Shown here one piece after another: positions 3,445 to 19,032 of a stretch of 23,709 nt of DNA. The translations under genes and the position numbers were made by a program. Under the pieces are notes generated by a model. The model ran no database searches. It had not been told where the DNA came from and saw nothing but the letters and a program-made list of their open reading frames with translations. Numbering within the stretch: the first letter of the stretch is position 1; every line of letters starts with the position of its first letter. The stretch is from Deinococcales bacterium. Lineage in GTDB: Bacteria; Deinococcota; Deinococci; Deinococcales; JAAFIG01. Location of the stretch: the NCBI GenBank assembly GCA_013298595.1, contig JAAFIG010000046.1, forward strand, positions 1 to 23,709, given 5' to 3'.

Positions 3445-3588
3445 ATTATACGGAATTGTGTTAATCAGTCAAAATACACGAGTGATTAACCGACTAAAAG
3501 GAGTAACAACGACACGGAATTAACGTTTGAACGACAGTTTGACCGTTTTTTGGTCAAACGAGAGTGATTAAGTTAATTCTGTATTATT
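3444..3588. repeat. hairpin-rich 145-bp element with imperfect terminal inverted repeats
   Basis: The first 24 bases (3444-3467) match the reverse complement of the last 24 (3565-3588) at 19 positions. Inside are GTTAATCA (3460-3467) with TGATTAAC (3483-3490), GAATTAAC (3517-3524) with GTTAATTC (3572-3579), and GTTTGACC (3537-3544) with GGTCAAAC (3552-3559). TGATTAA and ACGGAATT each occur twice, so two mutually exclusive RNA folds are possible: two local hairpins, or one long closing stem. There is no convincing ORF. It could be a MITE-like remnant or a structured RNA/leader; it does not match any riboswitch class I can recognise. Confidence 0.5.
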
Positions 3589-3597
3589 GCTCGAGAC

Positions 3598-3632
3598 AAA
3601 GCACACCCATAAAACTGGTGTGCTTTGGTTTT
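3598..3632 (+). terminator. rho-independent terminator before the aminotransferase gene
   Basis: AAAGCACACC (3598-3607) and GGTGTGCTTT (3617-3626) form a perfect 10-bp stem with a 9-nt loop, followed by GGTTTTG. It would end transcripts coming from the UbiA gene or from the element at 3444-3588. Only about 15 bases separate it from the aminotransferase start. Confidence 0.7.
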
Positions 3633-3633
3633 G

Positions 3634-3646
3634 TATGCTATTACCC
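3634..3646 (+). promoter_or_regulatory. leaderless-type promoter for the aminotransferase gene
   Basis: TATGCT (3634-3639) is followed by seven bases and then the ATG at 3647, with no Shine-Dalgarno. This places the predicted transcription start at or next to the start codon. No good -35 hexamer is visible. Confidence 0.5.
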
Positions 3647-4732
3647 ATGAATTATCGCCGAATGCCCATCGAGATTGAATCGCCAGAGCAACTGGGTTAC
3701 TCGAGTATTCGATATAACCTTGCCGAGTCTAGCGTTACAGATGTTATTTGGGATGATTTAAATTTGGATTTACGCGGTTTGGTTTTGCAGTACGGCGATC
3801 ATTTAGGGCATCCACAATTACGTGCTTTACTCGCCCAAGATGCAAACCTTGGGGCAGATCAGGTGCTCTTAACTGTTGGAGCTGCCAGTGCTTTATTTAT
3901 GGTGCATACCGCTTTGCTCAAAGCCAACGACGAATGTATCATCACTTTTCCAAATTACGGCACAAACCTCGAGACTCCGCTGGCAATGGGGTGCAACATC
4001 AAACGGCTCGAGTTGCGTTTCGAGGATGAATGGCGTTTAGATTTACATAAACTCGAGGCATTAGTGACCGCAAATACAAAACTTATTTCTTTAACCACCC
4101 CCCATAATCCAACTGGGACAGTCTTAACTCAAGCTGAAATCGAAGCTGTTATTGCCATTGCAACTCGAGTAAACGCGTTTGTACTGGTAGATGAAACCTA
4201 CCGCGAAATGAGTTTTACGACACCACCACCCATCGCAGCGAGTTTAGCCAACAATGTGATCAGCGTCTCGAGTGTCTCAAAAACATATGGTTTACCAGGC
4301 ATTCGATTGGGCTGGCTGATGACTCAGAACACCGTTTTACTCGAGAAATTATTAGCCGCCAAAGAACAAATTTTTATTGGTGGTAGTGTCCTAGATGAAG
4401 AAGTGGCATTCCAAGTTTTAGCCAAACGAAAAACCTTCCTCGAGAAAACCACAACCCATATCACCACCAATTTTGCCGTGGTCAAAGAATTTATGCAGCA
4501 ACAAAATAACCTCGAGTGGGTTGAACCAGCAGGTGGAGTGGTTTGTTTTCCACGTCTGAAAAACCTCGAGCCAGCAGCATTTTATCAAGCTTTACAAGAC
4601 ACTGGCACATACGTCGGACGTGGTGGTTGGTTTGACATGCCAGACACGTACTTCAGATTGGGTTTTGGCTGGACAAATCTCGAGACATTACAAGGTGGTT
4701 TAGCTGGTATCACCACAGCTTTACGCCGTTAA
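3647..4732 (+). CDS. PLP-dependent class I/II aminotransferase
   Basis: Cytosolic fold-type I pyridoxal-phosphate enzyme of 361 residues. Visible family marks are the TPHNPTG loop (N154-G157), the VDETYREM strand carrying the cofactor-binding Asp and Tyr, and [16 protein letters not shown] with the likely Schiff-base lysine K212 and the RxGW turn. Family members transfer amino groups between amino acids and keto acids. The 361-aa length and the N-terminal sequence resemble the capreomycidine-synthase/aspartate-aminotransferase-like group, but substrate is not assigned. The ATG at 3647 was chosen over a TTG at 3587 because the upstream codons fall inside a terminator hairpin and a -10 box lies seven bases before this ATG. 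Its last 12 bases overlap the 3' end of argR on the other strand. Confidence 0.85.
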
Positions 4733-5182
4733 GTAATCATCAAATTCGAGTTGCAATGCCTTTGCTGCCTCGAGATGACGAGCCGCCACAAAAATCGTGT
4801 CCTGCCCAGCGATTGTGCCCACAATATCATCTCGAGATAATTGATCTAAAACCAGTGCCACACCCATTGCATGACCATCTGAGGTACGCAGCACAACAAT
4901 GGTTTCACCTCGGTCAACGTCTTTGACAAATTGTTTAAAGCGTAAACGCAATTCTTCGGTCGGATCAGCTGCTAATTGAAATGGCGCAAGTGCATAACGA
5001 TGACTGGTTTTACCAACAGGTAAACGCACTAAACGCAACTCGGTGATGTCACGGCTGACGGTGGCTTGTGTGACGTTATACCCTTCTGCCAATAAGCGTT
5101 CGACCAATTCTGTTTGCGTGGCAATAAATTCCTTAGCGACAATATCTTGAATACGGCGTTGGCGTTGCTCTTTGCTTTGCAT
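4721..5182 (-). CDS. argR: arginine repressor, ArgR family
   Basis: DNA-binding regulator of arginine metabolism, 153 residues, the normal ArgR size. The N-terminal winged helix-turn-helix contains [16 protein letters not shown], where the SRD motif is characteristic. The C-terminal hexamerisation/arginine-binding domain holds [14 protein letters not shown], equivalent to the usual GTIAGDDT motif with one Asp changed to Gln. The start at 5182 begins the conserved N-terminus ([12 protein letters not shown]); a longer in-frame reading would run through the neighbour's promoter and signal-peptide region. A TATACT box sits six bases before the ATG with no Shine-Dalgarno, so the mRNA may be leaderless. 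A palindrome covers this promoter, suggesting autoregulation. It is divergent from the TPR gene and its 3' end overlaps the aminotransferase gene. No arginine biosynthesis genes are next to it. Confidence 0.92.
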
Positions 5183-5258: not shown

Positions 5259-5972
5259 ATGAAAAAAATCTTCACTGCATTACTGGCAGTTGCCTTGTTA
5301 GCAGGCATTACGGTGCAAGCCCAGAATCGCTTATCGGAAGCCAAAGCCTTATATACCAAAGGTGACTTTAAAGCAGCAGCGGACATAGCCAAAGATATCA
5401 ACACCGCCGAAGCCCAATCTTTTGCTGCCAAAGCCAACAGCATTTACGCCTATACACAACCCGAAAATAAACAAGAAGCCTTGTATACACAATCCGAAAA
5501 ATATGCTCGTAAAGCCATTAGTTTAGATGATAGCAACGCCGACGGTTACTTTGAAATCGCCAGAGCACTCGGCAGACTAAGCCAAATCCGAGGAATCCTC
5601 GCAGCCCTTTCCCAAGGTTTAGGTAGCCAAATTCGTGAAAACCTCGAGACAGCCTTGCGCTACGACACCAAACACACCGAAGCCATGGTTGCCTTTGGAC
5701 TTTGGCACTCCGAAATTGTGGCTAAAGGCGTGGGATGGTTATACGGAGCCAGCCCAGAAGCAGCAATTGGTTTCTTTGACCGCGCCGTTCGGCTTGAGCC
5801 AAAAACAATTATCCACAAAGTTGAATACGCTCATGGACTGTTACTCATAGACAAAAATAAGTACTTACAAAAAGCCAAAGATTTACTCGAAGAAGCTGTC
5901 AAACTCAAAGCCAATGATGCCGCCGAAGCCCTTGATTTAGCTCGAGCCAAACGCGACTTAGCTGCGTTATAG
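5259..5972 (+). CDS. secreted TPR-repeat protein
   Basis: A 237-residue exported protein. Residues 1-22 ([20 protein letters not shown]) are a clear Sec signal peptide with AQA-type cleavage. The rest is helical and alanine/lysine rich, with tetratricopeptide-like units: [17 protein letters not shown] (about 29-45), [27 protein letters not shown] (about 76-105), and [27 protein letters not shown] (about 168-195). Such proteins are periplasmic scaffolds for protein-protein contacts; no enzymatic motif is seen. It is transcribed divergently from argR and followed by the tandem-repeat region. Partners are unknown. Confidence 0.75.
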
Positions 5973-6032
5973 ATTTATAAGGCATGCCTCGCACCCTACA
6001 GATTTTTTGCCTTTTGCTTTATCTCGAGATGC

Positions 6033-6182
6033 GTTGTTTTCGATGTCCAGTCGCTTCGCGCCCCTAGGTTATGCTTTATACACTGTTATTTTCGATATCC
6101 AGCCGCTTCGCGTCCCTAGGTTATGCCTTATACACTGTTGTTTTCGATGTCCAGCCGCTTTGCGTCCCTAGGTTATGCCTTT
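6033..6182. repeat. three tandem copies of a 52-bp intergenic repeat
   Basis: Copies start at 6033, 6085 and 6137. The first two are 52 bp; the third is complete to about 6182 and then diverges. Each unit runs from GTTNTTTTCGATNTCCAG through CGCTTCGCG-like sequence and CCCTAGGTTATGC to TTATACACT, with only a few base differences between copies. Each unit carries the palindrome CCTAGG. There are no unique spacers, so this is not CRISPR. The array abuts the promoter of the cytochrome gene; in 5973-6032 before it there is only a GGCATGCC palindrome and one CTCGAG. Confidence 0.85.
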
Positions 6183-6203
6183 TTTGCCCTACAGCATTGG
6201 CAG

Positions 6204-6216
6204 TAACATAGGGCTT
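6204..6216 (+). promoter_or_regulatory. leaderless-type promoter for the cytochrome c operon
   Basis: TAACAT (6204-6209) followed by seven bases and a GTG start at 6217, with no Shine-Dalgarno. A T-rich stretch near 6181-6186 could serve as a poor -35. Confidence 0.5.
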
Positions 6217-6573
6217 GTGAGAATCACGTTTACTCGAGTACTACTGCTTTTGGTGATTGGATTACCAGTGCTCTTTATGGCTTGTGCTCCTCAGAATGAA
6301 GCGCTGGCAAAAGCCACTGCCGCTCATCCTGAAGGCAGGGCATTATTTGAACAATACAACTGTATGCGATGCCATGAAGGTGGTACTGGTGGGTACGGTA
6401 AACAAATGATTGAGAACACTCGTTTACGCAATTTAGAGTACATTAAAACTCGAGTGCTAAATGGCAAAGACTTAGGTGCCGCTAAAATGCCAGCCTACCC
6501 TGATATGCCAAAAAAAGACTTAGAAGAAATTGCAAGATTTGTTAGAACACTTGCAGGTTGGGAGAAACCATGA
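6217..6573 (+). CDS. single-haem c-type cytochrome, probable lipoprotein
   Basis: A 118-residue electron-transfer protein on the outer face of the inner membrane or in the periplasm. Residues 1-22 form a hydrophobic signal ending LFMAC with C23 as a likely lipidation cysteine (the lipobox is somewhat atypical). The haem-binding motif is CMRCH (C49, C52, H53), and KMPAYP supplies a plausible distal methionine ligand at M91, followed by the C-terminal helix LEEIARFVRTLAGW usual for class I cytochromes c. The GTG at 6217 is chosen because it gives a clean signal peptide and has a -10 box seven bases upstream; an ATG at 6175 would begin inside the tandem repeat. The stop overlaps the thioesterase start by four bases (ATGA). 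Redox partner not identifiable here. Confidence 0.85.
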   Translation: MRITFTRVLLLLVIGLPVLFMACAPQNEALAKATAAHPEGRALFEQYNCMRCHEGGTGGYGKQMIENTRLRNLEYIKTRVLNGKDLGAAKMPAYPDMPKKDLEEIARFVRTLAGWEKP

Positions 6574-6953
6574 CCATCGAAGAACGTTACACAATTTCTG
6601 AATGCCATAGCCTCGAGCAAATATTCCCCAATCAAACCAATCCTAATGGCACAGCCTTTGGTGGGCATATTGTTTCTTTGATGGATAAAGTCGCTGGTTT
6701 TGCCGCAGGACGATTTAGTGGTGGTGCAGTGGTGACTGCCAGTATGGACAAAGTGGATTTTCGTATACCAATTCGTATGGGCGAAGTGATCGAAGTGATT
6801 TCTAGAGTGGAATCTGTTGGGCGTACCAGTATGCGAATCAAAGTGGATGTTAAAAAAGCCATGCCCAACGATGACAGCCTTGTAACCAGCGGTTACTTTA
6901 CTTTTGTTGCCATAGACCAAATGGGCAAACCACGCCCAGCGATTCCCGAATGA
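6570..6953 (+). CDS. acyl-CoA thioesterase, hotdog fold
   Basis: A 127-residue single hotdog-domain protein of the YciA/acyl-CoA hydrolase type, which hydrolyses acyl-CoA thioesters in the cytosol. The motif NPNGTAFGGHIVSLMDKVAG spans about residues 24-43; N24 and D39 are the usual active-site positions, and the GG turn and central helix are clear. Then VTASMDKVDFRIPIRMGEV and the final SGYFTFVAID strand follow family order. Start ATG at 6570 overlaps the cytochrome stop and has GGGAG about five bases before it. It ends overlapping the next gene by four bases. The co-transcribed trio (cytochrome, thioesterase, phosphatase) shows no obvious pathway link. Confidence 0.88.
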   Translation: MTIEERYTISECHSLEQIFPNQTNPNGTAFGGHIVSLMDKVAGFAAGRFSGGAVVTASMDKVDFRIPIRMGEVIEVISRVESVGRTSMRIKVDVKKAMPNDDSLVTSGYFTFVAIDQMGKPRPAIPE

Positions 6954-7567
6954 CACCTAGCTCTCCTCCACTCCGAATTTGGCTAGTGAGGCACGGCATC
7001 ACCGATTGGAATATCGAAGGACGCTGGCAAGGCTGGTCAGACACACCTCTGTCCACCCAAGGTCATGAACAAGCTTGGAAGCTCCGCAACCGACTCGAGG
7101 CAAAAAACTTTGATCGGGTGTACTCGAGCGATTTATTACGGGCATTAGATACCGCCCGAATTGCAGGTTTTGAACCTGTTCCCGATGCCCGATTGCGCGA
7201 ATTAAACTTTGGGGTTTTTGAAGGTGGAAATAGCTTTGAAAATGCCAAACACCCAGAATTTGCCAGTTGGATACAAGACCCTGTCGAAAAAGCCGCGCCA
7301 ATGGGTGAAAGTTACGCCAGTTTACGCGCTCGAGCCATGCACTGGTTAAATACTCTGCCAGACAGTGGTGAAATGCTGGTTTTCTCGCATGGCGGGTGGA
7401 TTCAAGTACTGACCTGCGGCGTGCTCGAGGTCACACCACTGGCAGCACCACGCATTTGGCGACTACGGGTTACACATGCCAGCATTACTGTTCTCGAGCG
7501 GCACTGGACACCCAATGGCAATGTTTGGACACTCGAGCGATTAAATGACACGGCTCACCTCGAGTAG
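6950..7567 (+). CDS. histidine phosphatase (phosphoglycerate-mutase-like)
   Basis: A 205-residue cytosolic phosphatase of the same superfamily as the 1746 gene but in the CobC/PhoE-like branch. It has the canonical VRHGITDWN (R14, H15, G16), GWSDTPLSTQGHEQA, YSSDLLRALDTA with the conserved Arg, LRELNFGVFEG with the catalytic Glu, and FSHGGW with the second histidine H147. Substrate unknown; relatives act on small phosphomonoesters. It is the last gene of the cytochrome-thioesterase trio, starting in an ATGA overlap. CTCGAG is dense here (seven copies in 618 bases), giving Leu-Glu or Arg codon pairs; the gene even ends CTCGAGTAG. Confidence 0.88.
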   Translation: MTPSSPPLRIWLVRHGITDWNIEGRWQGWSDTPLSTQGHEQAWKLRNRLEAKNFDRVYSSDLLRALDTARIAGFEPVPDARLRELNFGVFEGGNSFENAKHPEFASWIQDPVEKAAPMGESYASLRARAMHWLNTLPDSGEMLVFSHGGWIQVLTCGVLEVTPLAAPRIWRLRVTHASITVLERHWTPNGNVWTLERLNDTAHLE

Positions 7568-7697
7568 TAACAGAAACTTCTACTGAAATTCTCTTAAAGA
7601 TATAGATATTCCCCATAAAATCCCTCACGCCGCAGTAAGGATTCTGTAAGAATTATTATGGTATCCCTAAGTTGTCTGTGCGGTTTTTAACAGATTT

Positions 7698-7727
7698 TTG
7701 CAATTTACAAGCTAATTTTGTTAAGAT
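7698..7727 (+). promoter_or_regulatory. promoter of the double-glycine peptide gene
   Basis: TTGCAA (7698-7703), an 18-bp spacer and TAAGAT (7722-7727), leaving a leader of about 33 nt before the ATG at 7767. About 45 bp upstream is the inverted repeat ATTCT-GTA-AGAAT (7641-7653), a candidate regulator site. The rest of the 199-bp gap after the phosphatase gene is AT-rich and holds no further recognisable element. Confidence 0.5.
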
Positions 7728-7751
7728 TTCATAGTCAAGCACCGATTTGAT

Positions 7752-7760
7752 AGAAGGAGA
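7752..7760 (+). promoter_or_regulatory. very strong ribosome binding site for the peptide gene
   Basis: AGAAGGAGA ends six bases before the ATG at 7767. It is the strongest Shine-Dalgarno in this part of the window and closely resembles the phage T7 gene 10 leader in sequence and spacing. Neighbouring genes mostly have weak or no Shine-Dalgarno, so the peptide is probably made in excess. Confidence 0.8.
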
Positions 7761-7766
7761 TACCAT

Positions 7767-7931
7767 ATGATTCGAGAATTGAATGTTCAAGAAGCACTCG
7801 AGACAGTTGGCGGTTGTGGCTCAAGACGCAGACGAACTGGCTGCAAACCACCGCCACCACCTTGCCCACCACCACCCGTTTGCCCACCTGTAGACCCACC
7901 ACCTGTTGACCCACCTGTTGATAATCCGTAA
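7767..7931 (+). CDS. double-glycine leader precursor of a proline/cysteine-rich secreted peptide
   Basis: A 54-residue precursor. Residues 1-16 (MIRELNVQEALETVGG) form a double-glycine leader; Leu at -12 and Glu at -8 relative to the GG match the leader pattern of class II bacteriocins and microcins, while the usual hydrophobic residue at -4 is shifted to -3. Cleavage after G16 would release a 38-residue core beginning CGSRRRRTGC, then K, runs of five and four prolines broken by Cys, and a tail with three PPVD units. The core holds 17 Pro, four Cys (core 1, 10, 17, 23), and RRRR plus Lys against three Asp. Two disulfides are possible. It has its own promoter, strong ribosome binding site and terminator, and lies just before a C39-peptidase exporter, its likely processing and export machine. 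No modification enzyme is nearby. Antimicrobial or signalling roles are inferences. The poly-proline runs should need EF-P for translation. Confidence 0.85.
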   Translation: MIRELNVQEALETVGGCGSRRRRTGCKPPPPPCPPPPVCPPVDPPPVDPPVDNP

Positions 7932-7951
7932 TTTACGGTTTTTGTGCCGTT

Positions 7952-7985
7952 GTCTCCTTGTTTGAAACAGGGAGACTTTTATTTT
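7952..7985 (+). terminator. rho-independent terminator after the peptide gene
   Basis: GTCTCCTTGTT and AACAGGGAGAC pair over 11 bp (one G-T wobble) with a 3-nt loop, 7952-7976, followed by TTTTATTTT. It separates the peptide transcript from the transporter operon. Confidence 0.85.
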
Positions 7986-8001
7986 CCAGTTATTTATAAA
8001 C

Positions 8002-8015
8002 TTGAGAAATCTCAA
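8002..8015. promoter_or_regulatory. palindrome upstream of the exporter promoter
   Basis: TTGAGA, AA, TCTCAA form a perfect 6-bp inverted repeat about 18 bp upstream of the -35 box of the exporter promoter. Candidate operator, from position alone. Confidence 0.3.
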
Positions 8016-8032
8016 ATGTTAGTTGAATAGCT

Positions 8033-8061
8033 TTGTAAATCCAAGATACTTGTCTTACAAT
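8033..8061 (+). promoter_or_regulatory. promoter of the peptide-exporter operon
   Basis: TTGTAA (8033-8038), a 17-bp spacer and TACAAT (8056-8061). It gives the ABC transporter, HlyD and TolC-like genes an expression start independent of the peptide gene. Confidence 0.6.
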
Positions 8062-8108
8062 GCCTTACTCAAGCCTATTTGCACAATCAGGCTTTTCCTA
8101 TTGAATTC

Positions 8109-10214
8109 ATGATGAAAATTTTCCTTCAAGATGATCCAACTGAATGCGGCGTAGCTTGTTTGCGCTCTATTCTGGCAAATTATGGGTATTTTTCAACCTC
8201 CAATCAGTTACGGCAAGCAACGGCTCTAAAAACTTCGGGCACTTCGTTATTTGGTTTGCAGTCAGCGGCTAAGCAAGTGCATTTTGAAGCCAAAGCTTTA
8301 GCGGCTGAACTCGAGGATTTGGCTTCTTTGGATTTGCCTTGTATTTTGCATTGGGATCATAATCATTATGTGGTTTTGTGGCGTATTTATAAAGGGAAAG
8401 CTTTTATTGGCGACCCTGCTTTGGGGAAAAATAAGTGGTGGGTTTTAGCAGATTTAAACAAGCATTGGACTGGAAAATTGTTGTGGTTACAACCAAGTAC
8501 CAGTTTTATTGCTGGTCATTTTGCTGGTAAACGAGGCTTTGCTGGTTTACTTGAACACCTCAAGCAGTTTCAGGGCTTAGGTTCTACACTGTTTTCAATT
8601 GGGTTAGGGACATTTTTTTTAGCTTTGCTGGGTTTAAGTGCACCAATACTTTCTCAGGTGTTATTTGATCGGGTTTTGACTTTTCGTGAAGATCAACTTT
8701 TACCTTATTTATTGTTTGGTATTTTTATCGTCTCGAGTTTTCAAACAGCTTTTGGGGCAATTCGTGGATATCTCTCGAATCATTTAGCCATGCGTTTAGA
8801 TTATCGTTTGCATCTTGGTTATTGGGATCATTTGCTGCATTTACCTTTGCGTCAACACGAAACACGTTTGGTTGGCGATTTATTGCAACGTTTCTCGGAT
8901 TTATCTAAAATTCGTACTGTTTTAACCAGCAGCATGATTGGCTTACCAAGTTCGGTTTTTTCTTTACTTGTCAGTGCTGCTTTACTGATTACCTACAATC
9001 CAACATTGGCTTTGGTAGCAGGGTTTAATATTCCTTTGCAACTGGCTTATTTGTTTATCTTATCGCCTATTCTGCGTGAAAATTCTCGAAAAACACTGAC
9101 AAAGGATGGCGAAGTGCAATCCTTTTTGATTGGTTCGCTCGAGGGATTAAGTACCATTAAAGCGTGGCGCAGCGAAGCTTGGGCTATGACCAAAGGACGT
9201 TTACATATTGCTTCGCTAACCCAATTGCAATGGCGTGGTTTGATGTTATCCACTTGGGGCAATGTGGTTTTTGCTTTGCTTGGCAGTTTTGGCAATATGT
9301 TGGTGTTGTGGTTTGGTGCTACCCAAGTCTTAAAACTCGAGTTAACCGTTGGGCAATTGGTGGCTGCCAGTGGCTTAATGGTCAATTCGGTAGCTGCTTT
9401 ATCAAGTATCACCGAAGGCATCATGAATATCCAAGAAGGTATTGTGGCTTCGGATCGCTTAGCTGAATTGCTCGAGGTTGAAACTGAATCTGATAAGGGT
9501 TTACGTGAATTACAACCTTTAACAGCTCATTTAAAAATCCAGAATCTGAGTTTTGGCTACTTACCAGAATTACCAATTCTTAAAAGTATTTCTTTTCATT
9601 TACCAAAGGGTTCTTACACGGCTTTTTTGGGTGCCAATGGCAGTGGTAAAAGTACATTAGCAACGATTTTGGCACAAATGCAGAACGCCTCATCAGGCAG
9701 TATTTTATGGGATGGGATTTCCTTATCAGAAGTGGCTATTAGTGCCGCTCGAGAGCGCATTTTGTATTTGCGTCAGGATGTGCCGTTATTTTATGCAACA
9801 CTGCGTGAAAATATTTCCTTTGCCGAGGATATCGAAGATAGTCAACTCTGGGCGGTGCTTGGTTCTGTTGGACTCGAGCAAATGGCAAGACGTTTACCTG
9901 AGGGGCTGGATACAGTCATTGGTGGTGAGAGTTTATTTAAGCTCTCGAGCGGCGAGCGTCAAATGCTTGGGTTGTGCCGAGCTTTATGTAGCACTGCCGA
10001 TGTGCTGATTTTAGATGAACCGACTGCCACCCTCGATATGGAACGTGAACGCCGTGTAGTACAGATTTTAACGCAGTTAAAACGCACTAAGACATTATTT
10101 GTTATCACCCACCGTCCTGCTTTAATCGAACCTGCCGATCAAGTACTCAGTCTCGAGGACGGCGAAGTGTTTAGTATCGAAAAAAATTCTGTTGGAAAGC
10201 AGGTGTTTGCATGA
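8109..10214 (+). CDS. peptidase-containing ABC exporter (C39 peptidase, membrane and ATPase domains)
   Basis: A 701-residue inner-membrane exporter of the PCAT type that cuts double-glycine leaders and pumps the peptide out. Residues 1-130 are a C39 cysteine peptidase: Q7 and C13 in QDDPTECGVACL, H86 in HWDHNHYVVL, D102 in GDPALG, so all catalytic residues are present. A six-helix membrane domain follows (about 150-430). The C-terminal ATPase has Walker A GANGSGKST (K514), a Q-loop at LRQDVPLF, signature LSSGERQ (from 612), Walker B VLILDEPTATLD and the H-loop ITHRP. Length is typical. The ATG pair at 8109 begins the C39 fold; a TTG at 8079 would add ten unsupported residues. No Shine-Dalgarno is evident. 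It overlaps the HlyD gene by four bases, indicating an operon. The peptide at 7767 is the obvious substrate. Confidence 0.93.
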   Translation: MMKIFLQDDPTECGVACLRSILANYGYFSTSNQLRQATALKTSGTSLFGLQSAAKQVHFEAKALAAELEDLASLDLPCILHWDHNHYVVLWRIYKGKAFIGDPALGKNKWWVLADLNKHWTGKLLWLQPSTSFIAGHFAGKRGFAGLLEHLKQFQGLGSTLFSIGLGTFFLALLGLSAPILSQVLFDRVLTFREDQLLPYLLFGIFIVSSFQTAFGAIRGYLSNHLAMRLDYRLHLGYWDHLLHLPLRQHETRLVGDLLQRFSDLSKIRTVLTSSMIGLPSSVFSLLVSAALLITYNPTLALVAGFNIPLQLAYLFILSPILRENSRKTLTKDGEVQSFLIGSLEGLSTIKAWRSEAWAMTKGRLHIASLTQLQWRGLMLSTWGNVVFALLGSFGNMLVLWFGATQVLKLELTVGQLVAASGLMVNSVAALSSITEGIMNIQEGIVASDRLAELLEVETESDKGLRELQPLTAHLKIQNLSFGYLPELPILKSISFHLPKGSYTAFLGANGSGKSTLATILAQMQNASSGSILWDGISLSEVAISAARERILYLRQDVPLFYATLRENISFAEDIEDSQLWAVLGSVGLEQMARRLPEGLDTVIGGESLFKLSSGERQMLGLCRALCSTADVLILDEPTATLDMERERRVVQILTQLKRTKTLFVITHRPALIEPADQVLSLEDGEVFSIEKNSVGKQVFA

Positions 10215-11218
10215 CCCAACCATCAGATTCTTTCAGACGAGTCAAAGTTGCCGAGTTACGGCGTTTTGAATGGGAACAACCCTCGAGTCAGGTTGCCAAA
10301 TGGACTTTTTTGGTACTGGTATTATTTGTGGTGGTTGCCGTTATTTGGGCTTCGGTTACGCAAATTCAGTTGTATGGTTTGGTGCTTGGACAACTCGAGC
10401 CTGAACGCAAATTAACTGTCGTTGAAATGCCTTTCGCTGGGCGAGTACTCGAGATTCGGGCGAGGTTATGGCGTGAAGTCAAAAAAGGTGATGTCTTATT
10501 TGTGGTGGATGGTGTTGGCACAGACGCTGCCGAGAGTGTTTTAAAACTCGAACGCAGTAATAATCAACTTTTAGATGCTTTAAAAACCCTCGAGACTGCG
10601 ACTGTAGATGCCACCCAACAACAACGTAAACTCGAGTCTGTCAGGGCTGTTTTTGCTGTGGGCGCAGCCTCAAGACTTGAATTTAAGGAAGCGCAAGAAA
10701 ATGCAGCTCGAGCTAAAGTGGTACTCGACCAAGCCAAGTTAAGAGTACAGGGTTTGAAACTCGAGCAAACCCAACAAAAACGCTTATCAAAACTGATTAT
10801 TCGTGCTCCAATTTCGGGCATTGTAACAACATTAGCAGTGCAACAAGCTGGGAAATTAGCCAACATGGGCATTGCTCTACTCGAGATTTTACCGAGTGGT
10901 TCGACGCTGATTTTTCGTGGTGAATTAAGCGAATCCGAACGCCCTAAAGTCAGAGAAGGCGCAAAAGCTGAAGTTGCTTGGGCGGCTTACCCACGTCAGA
11001 AATATGGTGTTACCCGTGGCATTGTCAAAGCCATCTCGCCAAATAGCAATGGTAAATATGCCCTCGAGATTCGTTTTGCAAAGTTGGTGCTTGAAGGTCC
11101 ACTTGGCAATCGTCCGTTGCTACCCGGTATGACAGCTGAAGCTCGAGTGATTGCAGCCACAAAACCAGCTTTGGGTTTATTATGGGATTGGTTACGTGGT
11201 GTTAATCCGCTTGATTAA
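10211..11218 (+). CDS. HlyD-family periplasmic adaptor of the type 1 secretion system
   Basis: Membrane-fusion protein of 335 residues linking the inner-membrane exporter to an outer-membrane channel. A short cytoplasmic N-terminus is followed by one transmembrane helix (31-49, WTFLVLVLFVVVAVIWASV). Next come a lipoyl half-motif (MPFAGRVLEIRARLWREVKKGDVLF), a coiled-coil hairpin rich in Lys/Glu/Gln/Ala (about 105-195), the second lipoyl half (IIRAPISGIVTTLAVQQAGKLANMG), and a beta-barrel region ending in the family's PGMTAEARV. It is shorter than E. coli HlyD (about 478 residues) because the coiled coil is short, as in bacteriocin/microcin adaptors. Start ATG overlaps the ABC gene stop. Ten CTCGAG copies fall within it. 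Confidence 0.9.
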   Translation: MTQPSDSFRRVKVAELRRFEWEQPSSQVAKWTFLVLVLFVVVAVIWASVTQIQLYGLVLGQLEPERKLTVVEMPFAGRVLEIRARLWREVKKGDVLFVVDGVGTDAAESVLKLERSNNQLLDALKTLETATVDATQQQRKLESVRAVFAVGAASRLEFKEAQENAARAKVVLDQAKLRVQGLKLEQTQQKRLSKLIIRAPISGIVTTLAVQQAGKLANMGIALLEILPSGSTLIFRGELSESERPKVREGAKAEVAWAAYPRQKYGVTRGIVKAISPNSNGKYALEIRFAKLVLEGPLGNRPLLPGMTAEARVIAATKPALGLLWDWLRGVNPLD

Positions 11219-11271
11219 AATCTTGAGCATCTTTAAGTGAAATGTACCAAAGTTATTCTTTCAAGGAGTTT

Positions 11272-12564
11272 ATGGTTGCTCGAGTTTTTTATAGTGTTAT
11301 ATTCACACTAATTTTTTCGGTTGCACAAGCTCAAACTATGCTTTCTCGAGCCGATGTCATGCGTTTAGCAGAACGCAGTGCCAGTGTAGAAGTGGCTCGA
11401 GCGCGTTTAGCGAGTGTAGAAGCCCAAGCAGCCGATGCTGGTGTTGGCTTATCTGGGAGTGTCACAGGCTCGGCTGCCGTGGTCAGTACAGTGCCAACGG
11501 CTGGTGCAAGCAATTTTACGTACCCTTGGGATATTCAATTTAATCTGCGTTTCGCTGGAATTTGGGGTGAAGCACAAGATGCTCGAGTCCAAGCCAGTCT
11601 TAATTTAGAACGAGCCAAACGCAGTTTATTAGCCGCGCGAGTTCGAGCCATAACCAGTGCAGTCAGTTTATGGCATGGTATTCGCCGTGGTTTAGCCAAT
11701 CTCGAGGTGGCACGTTTGGCATTGGACTTAGCAACACTTGAAGATCGGGCTGCTGAAGCTCGTTTCCAAGCTGGTGGCATCACTGTGGTGGATCGTGAAC
11801 GTTTTAGTATTGCTGTGGATATTGCAACACTTGATGTGACTCGAGCTGAAGTGCGTTTAGATGGTTTACGTTTACAATTTGAAGCCTTGTTTGGTGTTCG
11901 TAACCCAACCATTAAACAAGGTTGGACTGGGCTACCTGAACCTCGAGTTACAGAAGCGCAACTTGAAGCTCGGGAAGATGTTTTTGAAGCTCGAGCTGCT
12001 GCTATTGGGGCTGGCATTCAACAAAGCCAAGCCCAACGCGAAGTACTACCAGTCGTCAGTCTTGAGGGGAATTGGCGTGGTTCAGCGGGTGAATTTAATT
12101 GGGGAGTCAATCAATACTTGGCAGTATCGCTTGGGTACTCGTACCCAATAATCATACCTATTGGGGTCAGTCAAAGTTTCAGTATTGGTTTAAGTTTACG
12201 TATCCCACTTAACCCTTGGAAATTCTCGAGTGTCAGTGCTTTTTCACGGCAAGTTTCGGCAGCGCAGCGTTCTCTTGATACAGCTATTGCCATTGCCAAA
12301 GCCGATATCAGCAATAAACGTGCGGCTCTGGCATTAACTCGCTCGAGTTTACAATTGGCTTTGCGTTCGGCTGAGTATGCAGCGCGGCAAGTCGAACGTA
12401 TTCGTGTTCGGGTCAGTGCTGGTACAGCCTCCGTTGTGGATGTCAAACGTGCGGAATTAGATGCACTTAAAGCCAATGCTCAGATTCTCGAGGCACAATT
12501 TGAGACAGATGCAGCTATACTTGATATTTGTGCTGCATACGCATTTCCTTTGGAGGCTCAGTGA
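11272..12564 (+). CDS. TolC-like outer-membrane efflux protein
   Basis: A 430-residue exported protein of the TolC/outer-membrane-factor family, the likely exit channel of this secretion system. Residues 1-21 (MVARVFYSVIFTLIFSVAQAQ) are a signal peptide. The mature protein shows the two-fold TolC layout: long Ala/Arg/Glu-rich coiled-coil helices (about 30-55, 105-205), a beta-strand region with Gly/Ser-rich residues (GSVTGSAAVVSTVPTAG and VVSLEGNWRGSAGEFNWG), then a second coiled-coil half. The ATG at 11272 has AAGGAG upstream at short spacing (three bases); an ATG at 11242 would add ten hydrophilic residues before the signal peptide. The stop overlaps the start of a second, related gene. Confidence 0.85.
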   Translation: MVARVFYSVIFTLIFSVAQAQTMLSRADVMRLAERSASVEVARARLASVEAQAADAGVGLSGSVTGSAAVVSTVPTAGASNFTYPWDIQFNLRFAGIWGEAQDARVQASLNLERAKRSLLAARVRAITSAVSLWHGIRRGLANLEVARLALDLATLEDRAAEARFQAGGITVVDRERFSIAVDIATLDVTRAEVRLDGLRLQFEALFGVRNPTIKQGWTGLPEPRVTEAQLEAREDVFEARAAAIGAGIQQSQAQREVLPVVSLEGNWRGSAGEFNWGVNQYLAVSLGYSYPIIIPIGVSQSFSIGLSLRIPLNPWKFSSVSAFSRQVSAAQRSLDTAIAIAKADISNKRAALALTRSSLQLALRSAEYAARQVERIRVRVSAGTASVVDVKRAELDALKANAQILEAQFETDAAILDICAAYAFPLEAQ

Positions 12565-13556
12565 GATATTTACTTATTATTTTGATCTACCTATTTGCCA
12601 GCACGGCATCTGCACAAATTCCCGAAAAATGGTTTTCGGCAGCACTTGCACGTTCAGATAGTTTTAGTATTGCCCTCAGTGAAGCCCAAAATGCCAAGAT
12701 TCGTTTACAACGATTAAAATCCGATCCCTTAGCCACCAAACCTTTACTGCTCGAGGCAAGTACTACCCTTGAACTTGCCGAGGCTCGAGTCATTGCTGCG
12801 CGGCTCGATGTACGTCGTAGTGTTTTGCAAGATACTTTTGCTTGGAATTCTGCAGCGAATGCACTTGATTTAGCATCAGCTCGGGCAAATTTAGCCGATG
12901 CCAATGCTCGAGCCGCCAATGCTCGGTTTAAAACGGGTGCGATTACCAACAGTGAGTTAAATCGAGCAGAAGCTGATTTGCGTGCGGCTCAAAGCGAAGT
13001 GACCAGTGCTCGTTCTGAGTGGTTAGCCGCCAGTGAAGTTTTGCGGAGTCGTCTTGGTTTTGCTGCGGATGCCAGTTTGCCAAATGTTGCTACACCGCGT
13101 CCGCAAAAAATTATTTTAGAAAAAAGTATCGAAAACAATCTTCGTGTTGTGGAAACTCGAGGCAGTTTAGCTCGAGCTAAACTTGATTTAACCATTAAAG
13201 ATAATGAATTTACCGCACCTGTAGAAATTAACGAAGCACGCCGAAGTGTTGCCAATGCCGAACGCAACTTAGCTGATGCCCGAAACGTGGTCAAAACAGG
13301 TTTGGTTAATCGTTGGGAAACATATCAATCCACAGTCAATGCCATTACAGCTCGAGAGCGTGGTGTGCAATTGGCTCGAGATGAATTAAAAACCCAATCA
13401 GATCGTTTTTCACGTGGTTTGGTTTCGCAATTGGTGGTTTTGCAAGCCAAAGTCAATTTGGCACAACAACTGGCTTTATTTGAAGAGGCTCGGCAACGGT
13501 TTTCGCTGGCGGTGCTCGAGTTGGCAGTACTGGTCAATGTGGATGTTTGGTTGTAA
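12561..13556 (+). CDS. second, shorter TolC-like outer-membrane-factor protein
   Basis: A 331-residue exported protein directly after the first TolC-like gene, starting at a GTG in a GTGA overlap with TTTGGAGG just upstream. Residues 1-20 (MRYLLIILIYLFASTASAQ) form a signal peptide. The rest is long Ala/Arg/Glu/Leu-rich helices with repeated outer-membrane-factor motifs (LADANARAANARFKTGAITNSELNRAEADL and RFSRGLVSQLVVLQAKVNLAQQ), but the beta-barrel sequence that the first protein shows is poor or missing and it is about 100 residues shorter. It may pair with the first protein in a mixed channel, be a periplasmic-only helical partner, or be a degenerating duplicate. It ends directly against the stop of the convergent permease gene with no space. 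Confidence 0.7.
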   Translation: MRYLLIILIYLFASTASAQIPEKWFSAALARSDSFSIALSEAQNAKIRLQRLKSDPLATKPLLLEASTTLELAEARVIAARLDVRRSVLQDTFAWNSAANALDLASARANLADANARAANARFKTGAITNSELNRAEADLRAAQSEVTSARSEWLAASEVLRSRLGFAADASLPNVATPRPQKIILEKSIENNLRVVETRGSLARAKLDLTIKDNEFTAPVEINEARRSVANAERNLADARNVVKTGLVNRWETYQSTVNAITARERGVQLARDELKTQSDRFSRGLVSQLVVLQAKVNLAQQLALFEEARQRFSLAVLELAVLVNVDVWL

Positions 13557-14357
13557 TTAACGACGATGCGCCGAAAATTGCACTCGTAAAATTTCGGATA
13601 AAGCATTGATTTGCAGCACCAAAAGCATAATCAACCCTCCAGGTAGAATACTCAGCCACCAGGCACCGCTGAGTAAATACCCGTACCCTCTCGAGACCAT
13701 GCTGCCCAAACTTGGTGTCTCGATGCCAACCCCAACACCAAGAAACGATAAACTCGCTTCGAGTAAAATATTGTGTGGTACATCCAGCGCCATTTGCAGC
13801 AACATACCACTGGCAATATTGGGCAGTAAATGTCGCCATAAGGCTCGAGTTTCGGTTACACCAAGTGCCGTGGCTGCCTGCATATACTCGAGTTCGCGTT
13901 GTACCAGCACAGTGGCTCGAGTGTAACGGGCAAAGCTTGCCCAGCCAAATACACCAATAATGACAATTAAATTTTCCAATCCTGCCCCTAGAATTTTTAG
14001 CGTGACCAGTGCAAGGAGCATGGTCGGTAATGCCATTTGCACTTCGCTGGCACGTAAAATCAGTTGCTCGAGATGCCCCCTGCGCCACCCTGCAATTAAG
14101 CCAAGTGGCACACCAATACCTGCCGAAATGATGGTGCTAACCATACCAACCAACATCGAAATACCTAAGCCGCGCAACAATAACCCAAAAACATCTTGCC
14201 CCAACTCGTTAGTGCCTAACCAGTACAAACTCGAGAATGGAGGTTGTAGCACTTGGTTGAGGTTTTGCAACATCGCATTTGGTGAAATGATTGGTGCCAG
14301 TATGGCGACAACACAAAATCCAATAATGCCACCAAGCATTTGCCAGCCTTTATTCAT
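13557..14357 (-). CDS. peptide/nickel-type ABC transporter permease, DppC family
   Basis: Inner-membrane permease of 266 residues with about six hydrophobic helices, in the DppC/OppC family that imports peptides or nickel. Family marks: an N-terminal helix, YWLGTNELGQDVFGLLLRG, and the EAA loop AATALGVTETRALWRHLLPN at the ATPase-docking site, then LEASLSFLGVGVGIETPSLGSM. It starts inside the end of the DppB-family gene (8-base overlap), so the two are co-translated. No ATPase or binding-protein gene follows: the 3' end directly abuts the second TolC-like gene on the other strand, so partner subunits must be encoded elsewhere. Confidence 0.9.
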   Translation of the reverse strand: MNKGWQMLGGIIGFCVVAILAPIISPNAMLQNLNQVLQPPFSSLYWLGTNELGQDVFGLLLRGLGISMLVGMVSTIISAGIGVPLGLIAGWRRGHLEQLILRASEVQMALPTMLLALVTLKILGAGLENLIVIIGVFGWASFARYTRATVLVQRELEYMQAATALGVTETRALWRHLLPNIASGMLLQMALDVPHNILLEASLSFLGVGVGIETPSLGSMVSRGYGYLLSGAWWLSILPGGLIMLLVLQINALSEILRVQFSAHRR

Positions 14358-16473: not shown

Positions 16474-17096
16474 TTGTCTGGCAACACTGGCTCGATCAAA
16501 TAACAACAGACACTGGGGCTAGTTTGAGTGTCTCGAGAAACTTTGGCTTGCAATAATTGCCTGTACAAATCGGCTTCGCTCTCATAAACAGCCTCAAGTG
16601 CCACTTCGAGATGCGGAGAATTGCCTTGGGACAACACCCAGATGCCCTCTAAACGCTGAAGAGAAGCTTGATAGCCAAGTTCATTCAGAATCTCGAGCAA
16701 TGCCATTAAACGCTGCTCAAGTGAACCTTGTACTCGAGGTTGCCATTGAAGCAACAAGGTCTGGTTACGGCTATGTAAAACCGATAATACCGCGCCAACA
16801 CCATAAACTTGCTCGATATGTTCTAAGATATCAGTGCAAAGTTGCGCGTAGCGTTTAGGAAAATGCTGCTCGCCTTTACTCGAGACCCGAAAGACATGTT
16901 GCGGACGACCACGCTGGTTGACTCGTTGCACTTTGGCATCAAGTAAACCCTCATTTTTTAAATCCAATAAATGCTGCCGTGCCGCTGGCACACTGATCTC
17001 GAGAGCTGCAGCAACATCATGGGCTGTACCACTACCAGCGCCACGCAGCGCATACAAAACCCGAGTTTTGGTTGAATCGCCAGCAATACTGTGCAT
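16470..17096 (-). CDS. winged helix-turn-helix transcriptional regulator (ArsR/SufR-like)
   Basis: A 208-residue regulator. The N-terminal winged helix is clear: STKTRVLYALRGAGSGTAHD, then EISVPAARQHLLDLKNEGLL with the recognition helix, and a wing with NQRGRPQHVFRVS, the R-G-R-P turn common in SufR/ArsR-like proteins. The C-terminal half is helical and unassigned and ends near a CC pair (SVCCYLIEP). SufR proteins bind an Fe-S cluster through C-terminal cysteines, but only this pair is seen, so cluster binding is doubtful. A minus-strand AAGGAGGT lies 14 bases before the ATG, too far to be ideal; TAACCT five bases before the ATG could be a -10 for a leaderless mRNA. A near-perfect inverted repeat at 17120-17149 overlaps the likely -35 area. 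Confidence 0.75.
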   Translation of the reverse strand: MHSIAGDSTKTRVLYALRGAGSGTAHDVAAALEISVPAARQHLLDLKNEGLLDAKVQRVNQRGRPQHVFRVSSKGEQHFPKRYAQLCTDILEHIEQVYGVGAVLSVLHSRNQTLLLQWQPRVQGSLEQRLMALLEILNELGYQASLQRLEGIWVLSQGNSPHLEVALEAVYESEADLYRQLLQAKVSRDTQTSPSVCCYLIEPVLPDN

Positions 17097-17796: not shown

Positions 17797-17886
17797 GGAG
17801 GGTTGGCCGAGCGGTTGAAGGCGACAGTCTTGAAAACTGTAGTAGGGGAAACCTTACCGGGGGTTCGAATCCCTCACCCTCCGCCA
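17797..17886 (+). tRNA. tRNA-Ser, anticodon UGA
   Basis: Acceptor GGAGGGT pairs with ACCCTCC, discriminator G and encoded CCA at 17884-17886. Anticodon stem ACAGT/ACTGT closes loop CTTGAAA with anticodon TGA at 17831-17833. A long variable arm (GTAGGGG...CCTTAC region) and T-loop GTTCGAATC fit serine tRNA. It reads UCN serine codons. Confidence 0.97.
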
Positions 17887-17909
17887 AAGCCAGCACCCAA
17901 GATTCATCC

Positions 17910-18001
17910 GGAGGGATGGGTGAGCGGTTGAAACCAACGGTTTGCTAAACCGTCGTACGAAGAAATTTGTACCGAGAGTTCGAATCTCTCTCCCTCCGCC
18001 A
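17910..18001 (+). tRNA. tRNA-Ser, anticodon GCU
   Basis: Acceptor GGAGGGA pairs with TCCCTCC, discriminator G and encoded CCA ending at 18001. Anticodon stem ACGGT/ACCGT closes loop TTGCTAA with anticodon GCT at 17944-17946. Long variable arm, T-loop GTTCGAATC. It reads AGC/AGU. It lies 23 bp after tRNA-Ser(UGA), with which it shares most of its acceptor stem. Confidence 0.97.
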
Positions 18002-18040
18002 AGTAACACCCCGCTTAGCAAACGGGTCGCAACCAAACAA

Positions 18041-18117
<77 letters not shown>

Positions 18118-18195: not shown

Positions 18196-19032
18196 GTGGA
18201 TTTTACTTTTCAAGCTATCATTTTAGGTATTGTCGAAGGCATCACCGAATTCTTACCCATCTCGAGCACAGGGCACTTAATTGTTGCCGAGCATCTACTT
18301 GGATTTTCTGACCCGAGTAAAACCTTTACTGTGGTCATTCAAATTGGGGCGATTCTAGCCGTGATTCTGTATTACTTTAAAGATTTACTGGCTCGAGTGA
18401 CAGGTTTATTCCAAGGGCAAGCCAATGCCAAAAAATTCTGGTTCAACCTTGTCATTGCCACTATTCCTGCAGCGGTACTGGGTTTAGCCTTAGAAAACTT
18501 TCTAGGTTTTCTTGACACACCTTTAACAGTTGCATTAGCTCTGATTATTGGTGGCATTATTTTGTTTGTGCTCGAGACCATACGCGGCAAACAACAAACC
18601 GCTCCCGAAGCACTCGAGCCAGACATTGACAGCATCACACCACGCCAAGCTTTACTGATTGGGGCTTTTCAAGTGCTTGCTGTGATTTTCCCAGGCACCT
18701 CGAGAAGCGGAGCCAGTATTGTTGGTGGTTGGCTGGTTGGCTTAAACCGCGTTACAGCCACTGCGTTCTCGTTTTATTTAGGTATTCCTACACTTGGCGC
18801 AGCAGGATTATACAAACTGTATAAGGCTCGAGATAGCCTCAGTAGTTTATCTGGTGGTGCTCCAGCTTTACTCATTGGCAGTGTGGTGAGCTTAATTACG
18901 GCGTTTTTAGCAGTTTCATGGTTACTAAAATTTATCTCGAGAAATGATTTCAAAGGCTTTGCGATTTACCGTATCGTAGCAGGGCTTGTGATCCTGATCT
19001 TATTAGCCACAAATGTCATGCCGAACACCTAA
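18196..19032 (+). CDS. uppP: undecaprenyl-diphosphate phosphatase
   Basis: Inner-membrane enzyme (BacA/UppP family) that converts undecaprenyl diphosphate to undecaprenyl phosphate, recycling the lipid carrier for peptidoglycan and other wall polymers; overexpression gives bacitracin resistance in known bacteria. The 278-residue, multi-helix product has both catalytic motifs: VEGITEFLPISSTGHL (from residue 13) and PGTSRSG (166-172). The GTG start has TAGACT seven bases upstream, no Shine-Dalgarno, and a CTCGAG in the gap, suggesting a leaderless mRNA. It follows the tRNA terminator, and its stop is one base from that of the convergent gene. Confidence 0.96.
   Translation: MDFTFQAIILGIVEGITEFLPISSTGHLIVAEHLLGFSDPSKTFTVVIQIGAILAVILYYFKDLLARVTGLFQGQANAKKFWFNLVIATIPAAVLGLALENFLGFLDTPLTVALALIIGGIILFVLETIRGKQQTAPEALEPDIDSITPRQALLIGAFQVLAVIFPGTSRSGASIVGGWLVGLNRVTATAFSFYLGIPTLGAAGLYKLYKARDSLSSLSGGAPALLIGSVVSLITAFLAVSWLLKFISRNDFKGFAIYRIVAGLVILILLATNVMPNT

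What the first reader, a model, noticed from the sequence alone, without database searches (positions are those of the whole stretch)
7698..13556. Complete leader-cleaving secretion locus for a proline/cysteine-rich double-glycine peptide
Seen: a 54-codon gene (7767-7931) whose first 16 residues end in VGG and match the Leu(-12)/Glu(-8) double-glycine leader pattern. Its core has RRRR, four Cys and 17 Pro, with three PPVD units at the C-terminus. It is followed by a C39-peptidase ABC exporter with intact Q7, C13, H86 and D102, an HlyD adaptor and two TolC-like genes. Known: PCAT exporters cut after GG and export the core. Inference: this is an unmodified, possibly disulfide-linked secreted peptide, antimicrobial or signalling. 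A cationic head joined to a polyproline body resembles proline-rich antimicrobial peptides of animals more than standard class II bacteriocins. No modification or immunity gene is seen.
Basis: partly seen in the sequence, partly recalled or inferred. Interest (0 to 1): 0.9.

Follow-up and report, generated by a model that had tools for sequence, protein, structure and literature searches.

The report
Proline/cysteine-rich double-glycine peptide with exporter
A bacterium apparently related to Meiothermus carries a small gene for an unusual proline- and cysteine-rich peptide next to a complete, ordinary-looking machine that would cut off its leader and export it, probably as a bacteriocin-like weapon, although the peptide has no known relative and no visible self-protection gene.

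Summary
At 7767-7931 a 54-codon ORF with a strong Shine-Dalgarno encodes MIRELNVQEALETVGG|CGSRRRRTGCKPPPPPCPPPPVCPPVDPPPVDPPVDNP. It is followed by an 11-bp terminator hairpin, then a C39-ABC exporter with intact catalytic residues, an HlyD adaptor and two OEP/TolC-like genes. Independent support: a leader profile built only from Meiothermus peptides finds this ORF as its one hit (E up to 5) in the 4.58-Mb genome, and 1.4 Mb of resampled sequence gave no leader of the strict type. The nearest exporters (52-57% identical) occur in genomes that carry arrays of peptides with the same REL..E..GG leader, followed by Rce1-like (CPBP-type) membrane proteins; one peptide resembles Bacteriocin_IIc. So it is most likely a GG-leader, type-I-secreted, bacteriocin-like peptide of class II microcin type, probably horizontally acquired. 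The core has no homologue in the 61 related genomes searched and no immunity gene is visible, so its activity is unproven. The animal proline-rich AMP analogy is not supported. The apparatus is a known kind; the core is new. A side lead: Meiothermus arrays repeat a conserved proline-rich GG peptide at the head of their cassettes.

The parts
7767..7931 (+). 54-aa precursor: leader 7767-7814 (MIRELNVQEALETVGG), core 7815-7928 (38 aa, C/R/P-rich), stop 7929-7931
7751..7766 (+). Shine-Dalgarno region (AAGGAG at 7754-7759, 7 nt before the ATG)
   Evidence: direct reading
7952..7976 (+). intrinsic terminator-like hairpin (11-bp stem, loop of 3, TTTTATTTT tail) between peptide and exporter; inferred to keep exporter transcripts below peptide transcripts
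   Evidence: 3 terminator-like sites in the region, 0.4 expected; -21.5 kcal/mol, z -4.05, 0 of 200 shuffles as stable
8109..10214 (+). PCAT: C39 peptidase / ABC exporter, 701 aa (possible TTG start at 8079); Q7, C13, H86, D102
   Evidence: (PCAT1 4ry2 E 1.2e-89; ComA 8hf7 E 2.9e-69)
10211..11218 (+). HlyD/CvaA-type membrane fusion protein, 335 aa
11242..12564 (+). OEP/TolC-like outer-membrane protein 1, 440 aa
12528..13556 (+). OEP/TolC-like outer-membrane protein 2, 342 aa (a GTG start at 12561, behind CTTTGGAGG, would make it 331 aa)

Best explanation
The locus makes and exports one ribosomal, probably unmodified peptide by a class II microcin (MccV)-like type I route. The 16-residue leader docks on the C39 domain, Cys13 cuts after Gly-Gly, and the 38-residue core (about 3.99 kDa, charge about +2, N-terminal Cys, four Cys that could form two disulfides outside the cytoplasm, a polyproline body and a PPVD tail) leaves through the HlyD/OEP channel. 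The most likely role is a bacteriocin-like antagonist of related bacteria. Shown here: gene anatomy, intact catalytic motifs, and leader and exporter homology with Meiothermus loci that look like bacteriocin loci. Inferred: cleavage, export, disulfides, antibacterial action. Sub-confidences: about 0.9 that the peptide is a GG substrate of this exporter; about 0.5 that its role is antibacterial.
For: Precursor ORF with strong SD and GG leader directly upstream of the exporter. The leave-one-out leader profile hits only this ORF genome-wide at E<=5. C39 catalytic residues and ABC motifs intact. Nearest exporters (52-57% identical) occur in genomes with GG-peptide arrays of the same leader type, one leader 56% identical (MIRELSVEELETIEGG). 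That peptide matches Bacteriocin_IIc at E 8e-6, just under Pfam's cut-off. Rce1-like membrane proteins, a known type of bacteriocin immunity protein (my knowledge), follow GG peptides in these arrays. A terminator after the peptide gene is a common arrangement in bacteriocin operons (my knowledge). The locus is absent beside the matching permease gene in same-genus G001 and in the 6.5 kb behind the matching phosphatase in G002, and the exporter stretch has low GC (0.39 against about 0.46), as expected of an acquired cassette.
Against: No homologue of the core anywhere searched. No recognisable immunity protein in the locus and no Rce1-like gene as in Meiothermus. The core lacks the Gly-rich or amphipathic/transmembrane character of known class II bacteriocins (my knowledge). 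Leader positions -7 (Ala) and -4 (Thr) are weak. A single sequence, so purifying selection could not be tested.
Confidence: 0.5

Rival explanations
1. Same export route, but the core is a signal or pheromone rather than a toxin: secreted, sensed by the population, with no need for an immunity gene.
For: No immunity gene in the locus. GG-leader export is also used for pheromones (ComA/ComC type, my knowledge; ComA is among the solved relatives). In Meiothermus and G064 a LuxR-type (GerE) gene follows the HlyD gene.
Against: No regulator, histidine kinase or receptor gene sits in this locus; the LuxR-type gene of Meiothermus is missing here. The core is long, charged and Cys-rich for a linear pheromone.
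Confidence: 0.2
2. The exported core is structural or protective: a Cys/Pro-rich extracellular or envelope-bound peptide (cross-linked polyproline rod, or a metal or redox binder through its four Cys), not an antagonist.
For: Polyproline with regularly spaced Cys (17, 26, 33, 39) and PPVD repeats looks like a rigid spacer (direct reading); no immunity gene; no core homologue among the bacteriocin-like peptides.
Against: No cell-wall-binding or anchoring motif; relatives of the exporter occur with bacteriocin-like peptides.
Confidence: 0.17
3. The ORF is a regulatory leader ORF: ribosome stalling on PPPPP/PPPP controls read-through of the terminator into the exporter genes, and the GG resemblance is incidental.
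For: A strong terminator lies 20 nt past the stop codon, upstream of the exporter; polyproline runs stall ribosomes without EF-P (my knowledge).
Against: The GG leader matches an independent profile and is its only hit in the genome. The fold of 7767-7990 is no more stable than shuffles (z -1.67) and shows no alternative antiterminator stem. This would not explain what the exporter exports.
Confidence: 0.05
4. The ORF is non-functional or a decayed remnant and the exporter serves other substrates elsewhere in the genome.
For: No conserved core; single copy in one genome.
Against: Strong SD, no frame damage, Pro codon choice in line with neighbouring genes (CCA 10 of 17 against 48% in 15 window genes), and no other hit to the Meiothermus leader profile in the genome, though the genome is only 94% complete.
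Confidence: 0.08

Closest known systems
Class II microcins (MccV/colicin V system: CvaC, CvaB, CvaA, TolC)
   Same: GG-leader precursor, C39-ABC exporter with the catalytic triad, HlyD-type MFP, outer-membrane factor; leader starts with the same kind of M(I)REL motif (components as in PMC9746304)
   Different: Dedicated OEP genes (two) in the locus; core Pro/Cys-rich; no immunity gene; not an enterobacterium
GG-peptide arrays of Meiothermus and G064 found here (L026, L035, L036/L038, L089, L090, L091)
   Same: Closest exporters (52-57% identical) and adaptor (37% identical), same leader type; a short proline-rich GG peptide of similar core size in Meiothermus
   Different: There: several cassettes with variable GG peptides, Rce1-like proteins and a LuxR-type gene; here: one peptide upstream of the exporter, no Rce1-like gene, no LuxR-type gene, non-homologous core
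PCAT1 (4ry2) and ComA (8hf7) exporters
   Same: Domain order C39-TMD-NBD and catalytic residues align along the whole length
   Different: Gram-positive, no HlyD/TolC partners; remote sequence similarity
Animal proline-rich antimicrobial peptides (apidaecin, bactenecin class)
   Same: High Pro content, some Arg
   Different: Cys-rich, acidic tail, Arg in a single block, no PRP-type motifs; resemblance only in composition

Membership tests
Class II microcin (criteria as in PMC9746304) | Precursor with N-terminal double-glycine leader | tested here: met
   positions -4 and -7 atypical
Class II microcin | C39 ABC transporter with Cys/His/Asp triad | tested here: met
   C13, H86, D102 plus Q7
Class II microcin | Membrane fusion protein and outer-membrane factor | tested here: met
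   HlyD_3 and two OEP proteins
Class II microcin | Cognate immunity protein near the peptide gene | tested here: not met
   Only the phosphatase, thioesterase and cytochrome c genes upstream and the export genes downstream; the short antisense ORFs over the peptide gene are reverse-strand polyproline
Class II microcin | Demonstrated antibacterial activity | not testable with these tools
   needs a bioassay
Class II bacteriocin by Pfam (Bacteriocin_IIc PF10439 and similar) | Match to a Pfam or NCBIfam bacteriocin model | tested here: not met
   0 families in Pfam and NCBIfam
NCBIfam exporter subfamilies (TIGR01193 bacteriocin_ABC, TIGR03796 NHLM_micro_ABC1) | Curated score cut-off | tested here: not met
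   319 against 523.85 and 356 against 853.3 bits: C39-ABC superfamily member outside the named subfamilies
RiPP with modification enzymes (NHLP, lanthipeptide and the like) | Adjacent modifying enzyme | tested here: not met
   No such gene among the Pfam-scanned neighbours at 5259-14357
Animal-type proline-rich antimicrobial peptide | Cys-free, PRP-type motifs, ribosome binding | tested here: not met
   Sequence has four Cys and no PRP motif; ribosome binding not testable here

The most novel reading that the evidence does not exclude
This core and the conserved proline-rich GG peptides at the head of Meiothermus cassettes are versions of one undescribed class of secreted polyproline peptides, perhaps a shared companion or scaffold for the variable toxins, and here it has gained cysteines and acts alone.
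Probability: 0.12. Interest if true: 0.65.

Novelty: new variant of a known kind. Interest (0 to 1): 0.38.

Why it matters
GG-peptide secretion loci have been catalogued mainly in Gram-positives, enterobacteria and cyanobacteria; my searches of the held papers found no description for Meiothermus (limited to open-access texts). If the peptide is made, it would be a secreted Cys/Pro-rich core unlike known class II bacteriocins, exported by a type I route in a lineage where such weapons are little studied. The lack of an immunity gene makes toxin versus non-toxin a clean test.

Tried and rejected
Core homologues by protein search in the own genome and 60 related genomes gave only low-complexity Pro matches (best E 4.9e-4, inside a 419-aa frame in G048), and none in plasmids at E<=10. 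Core similarity to the Meiothermus proline-rich GG cores is no better than shuffled cores (fractions 0.44, 0.54 and 0.12 of shuffles reach the score), so homology is not claimed. Genome contigs gave only distant ABC proteins (24-30% identical); plasmid exporters were at most about 31% identical. Attenuator leader-ORF model: no antiterminator fold. The first leader-profile search included the query and is not used as evidence; one search is the leave-one-out version. Structure prediction was not run: a 38-residue Pro-rich core would not give an informative model.

Full report
WHAT IS THERE. The ORF at 7767-7931 encodes MIRELNVQEALETVGG|CGSRRRRTGCKPPPPPCPPPPVCPPVDPPPVDPPVDNP, starting 7 nt behind AAGGAG. 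A strong intrinsic-terminator-like hairpin (7952-7976; -21.5 kcal/mol, z -4.05) separates it from the exporter. The exporter from ATG 8109 has 701 aa with C39, transmembrane and nucleotide-binding domains, Q7, C13, H86, D102 and intact ABC motifs, and aligns along its length with PCAT1 and ComA. HlyD (10211-11218) and two OEP genes (11242-12564, 12528-13556) follow, closely spaced or overlapping. The opposite-strand genes from 13557 on are peptide-transport-type permeases, so the cluster ends there.

IS THE LEADER REAL? A strict leader pattern occurs once among 371 short ORFs in the window, never in 1.42 Mb of first-order Markov sequence and never in 223 kb of other fetched loci. That pattern was written after seeing the ORF, so the stronger test is independent: a profile of eight leaders taken only from Meiothermus loci, searched over the own genome, gives one hit at E<=5, this ORF at full length (E 0.42). 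A chance hit would fall anywhere in 4.58 Mb; this one lies directly before the exporter. The leader departs from the canonical pattern at -7 (Ala) and -4 (Thr), but each departure also occurs in a Meiothermus leader.

WHAT THE RELATIVES SHOW. Of 111 genomes of the order, seven (own included) have a close exporter: four of one genus (52-53% identical), one of another genus in that family (57%) and one of a third family (48%, cut by a contig end). The single-contig genome G025 has 3,097,457 bases, which I recall as Meiothermus ruber DSM 1279; the genus name Meiothermus used here rests on that recollection. In G025, G072 and G073 the order is ABC, HlyD, LuxR-type gene, then GG peptides. In G064 the exporter contig ends after the LuxR-type gene, and a GG array lies on another contig (C134) with an OEP gene at its end. 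In the arrays of G072, G073 and G064, Rce1-like (CPBP) membrane proteins follow GG peptides; such proteins are known immunity proteins of class II bacteriocins (my knowledge). One G072 peptide, with leader MIRELSVEELETIEGG, matches Bacteriocin_IIc (E 8e-6, 26.2 bits against a cut-off of 27.1). This makes bacteriocin export the likeliest job of the exporter family and is the main reason for favouring an antagonistic role here.

WHAT DOES NOT CARRY OVER. The core has no homologue in 61 genomes or in the plasmid collection, and no Rce1-like or other immunity candidate is present. The closest analogue by composition is a short GG peptide that heads cassettes in several Meiothermus genomes (cores of about 35-38 aa with 8-12 Pro), but its alignment score with our core is what shuffled cores give. 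Among near copies of that peptide dS mostly exceeds dN (for example G025 against G072_3: dN 0.017, dS 0.133), suggesting it is a real, selected gene, though some pairs show no excess.

ORIGIN. In the same-genus genome G001 the matching permease and LacI genes are present but the gene next to the permease is a 139-aa ORF followed by isoprenoid genes, not the exporter; the phosphatase side in G001 is cut by a contig end and says nothing. In G002 no exporter match lies in the 6.5 kb behind the matching phosphatase. With the GC dip (0.39 at 8001-9000) and patchy distribution, horizontal acquisition is the simplest reading, not proof.

MECHANISM. Shown: anatomy, motifs, homology. From established knowledge of PCATs and MccV (PMC9746304, PMC10231218): the C39 domain recognises and cuts the leader, and the core passes through MFP and OMP. 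PMC10231218 reports that the MccV system exported human EGF in its disulfide-bonded form, so a Cys-rich core is compatible with such a route. Inferred: two disulfides, antibacterial role, higher expression of the peptide than of the exporter through the terminator.

VERDICT. A sound first-stage observation; the export reading is well supported, the proline-rich-AMP analogy is not. The machinery is a known kind; the core is an unusual cargo of unproven activity.

Noticed in passing
L036:14130-14291, 16829-16990, 18437-18595; L038:2264-2425; L035:10657-10818, 13542-13703; L026:13060-13221; L090:7625-7786, 9027-9188; L091:6139-6294: A conserved proline-rich GG peptide (ATEPSAWLKLITQLPALPEPWPRGGIVPPPKQPEERE type) recurs in Meiothermus arrays, mostly just before a variable GG peptide; a possible companion peptide or the constant part of a recombining cassette.
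   Followed up: partly
L036:12768-12804: The first copy of that proline-rich peptide in G072 is broken by a TAG inside the leader.
   Followed up: no
L035:13425-13530 and L036:18179-18400: Downstream cassettes carry remnants of the LuxR-type gene's 3' end before the proline-rich peptide, suggesting the cassettes arose by duplication of that junction.
   Followed up: no
L035:12259-13245; L038:86-1108 and 3511-4812: S41-like peptidase genes lie inside or beside the Meiothermus GG arrays (the L035 one matches Peptidase_S41, E 2.4e-13; those in L038 judged by sequence likeness only).
   Followed up: no
window 11242-13556: Two adjacent OEP genes in one type I locus, the second short; a short OEP protein (238 aa) also ends the G064 array (L089:10750-11466).
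   Followed up: no
window 17797-18117: Three tRNA genes (Ser-TGA, Ser-GCT, Arg-ACG).
   Followed up: no
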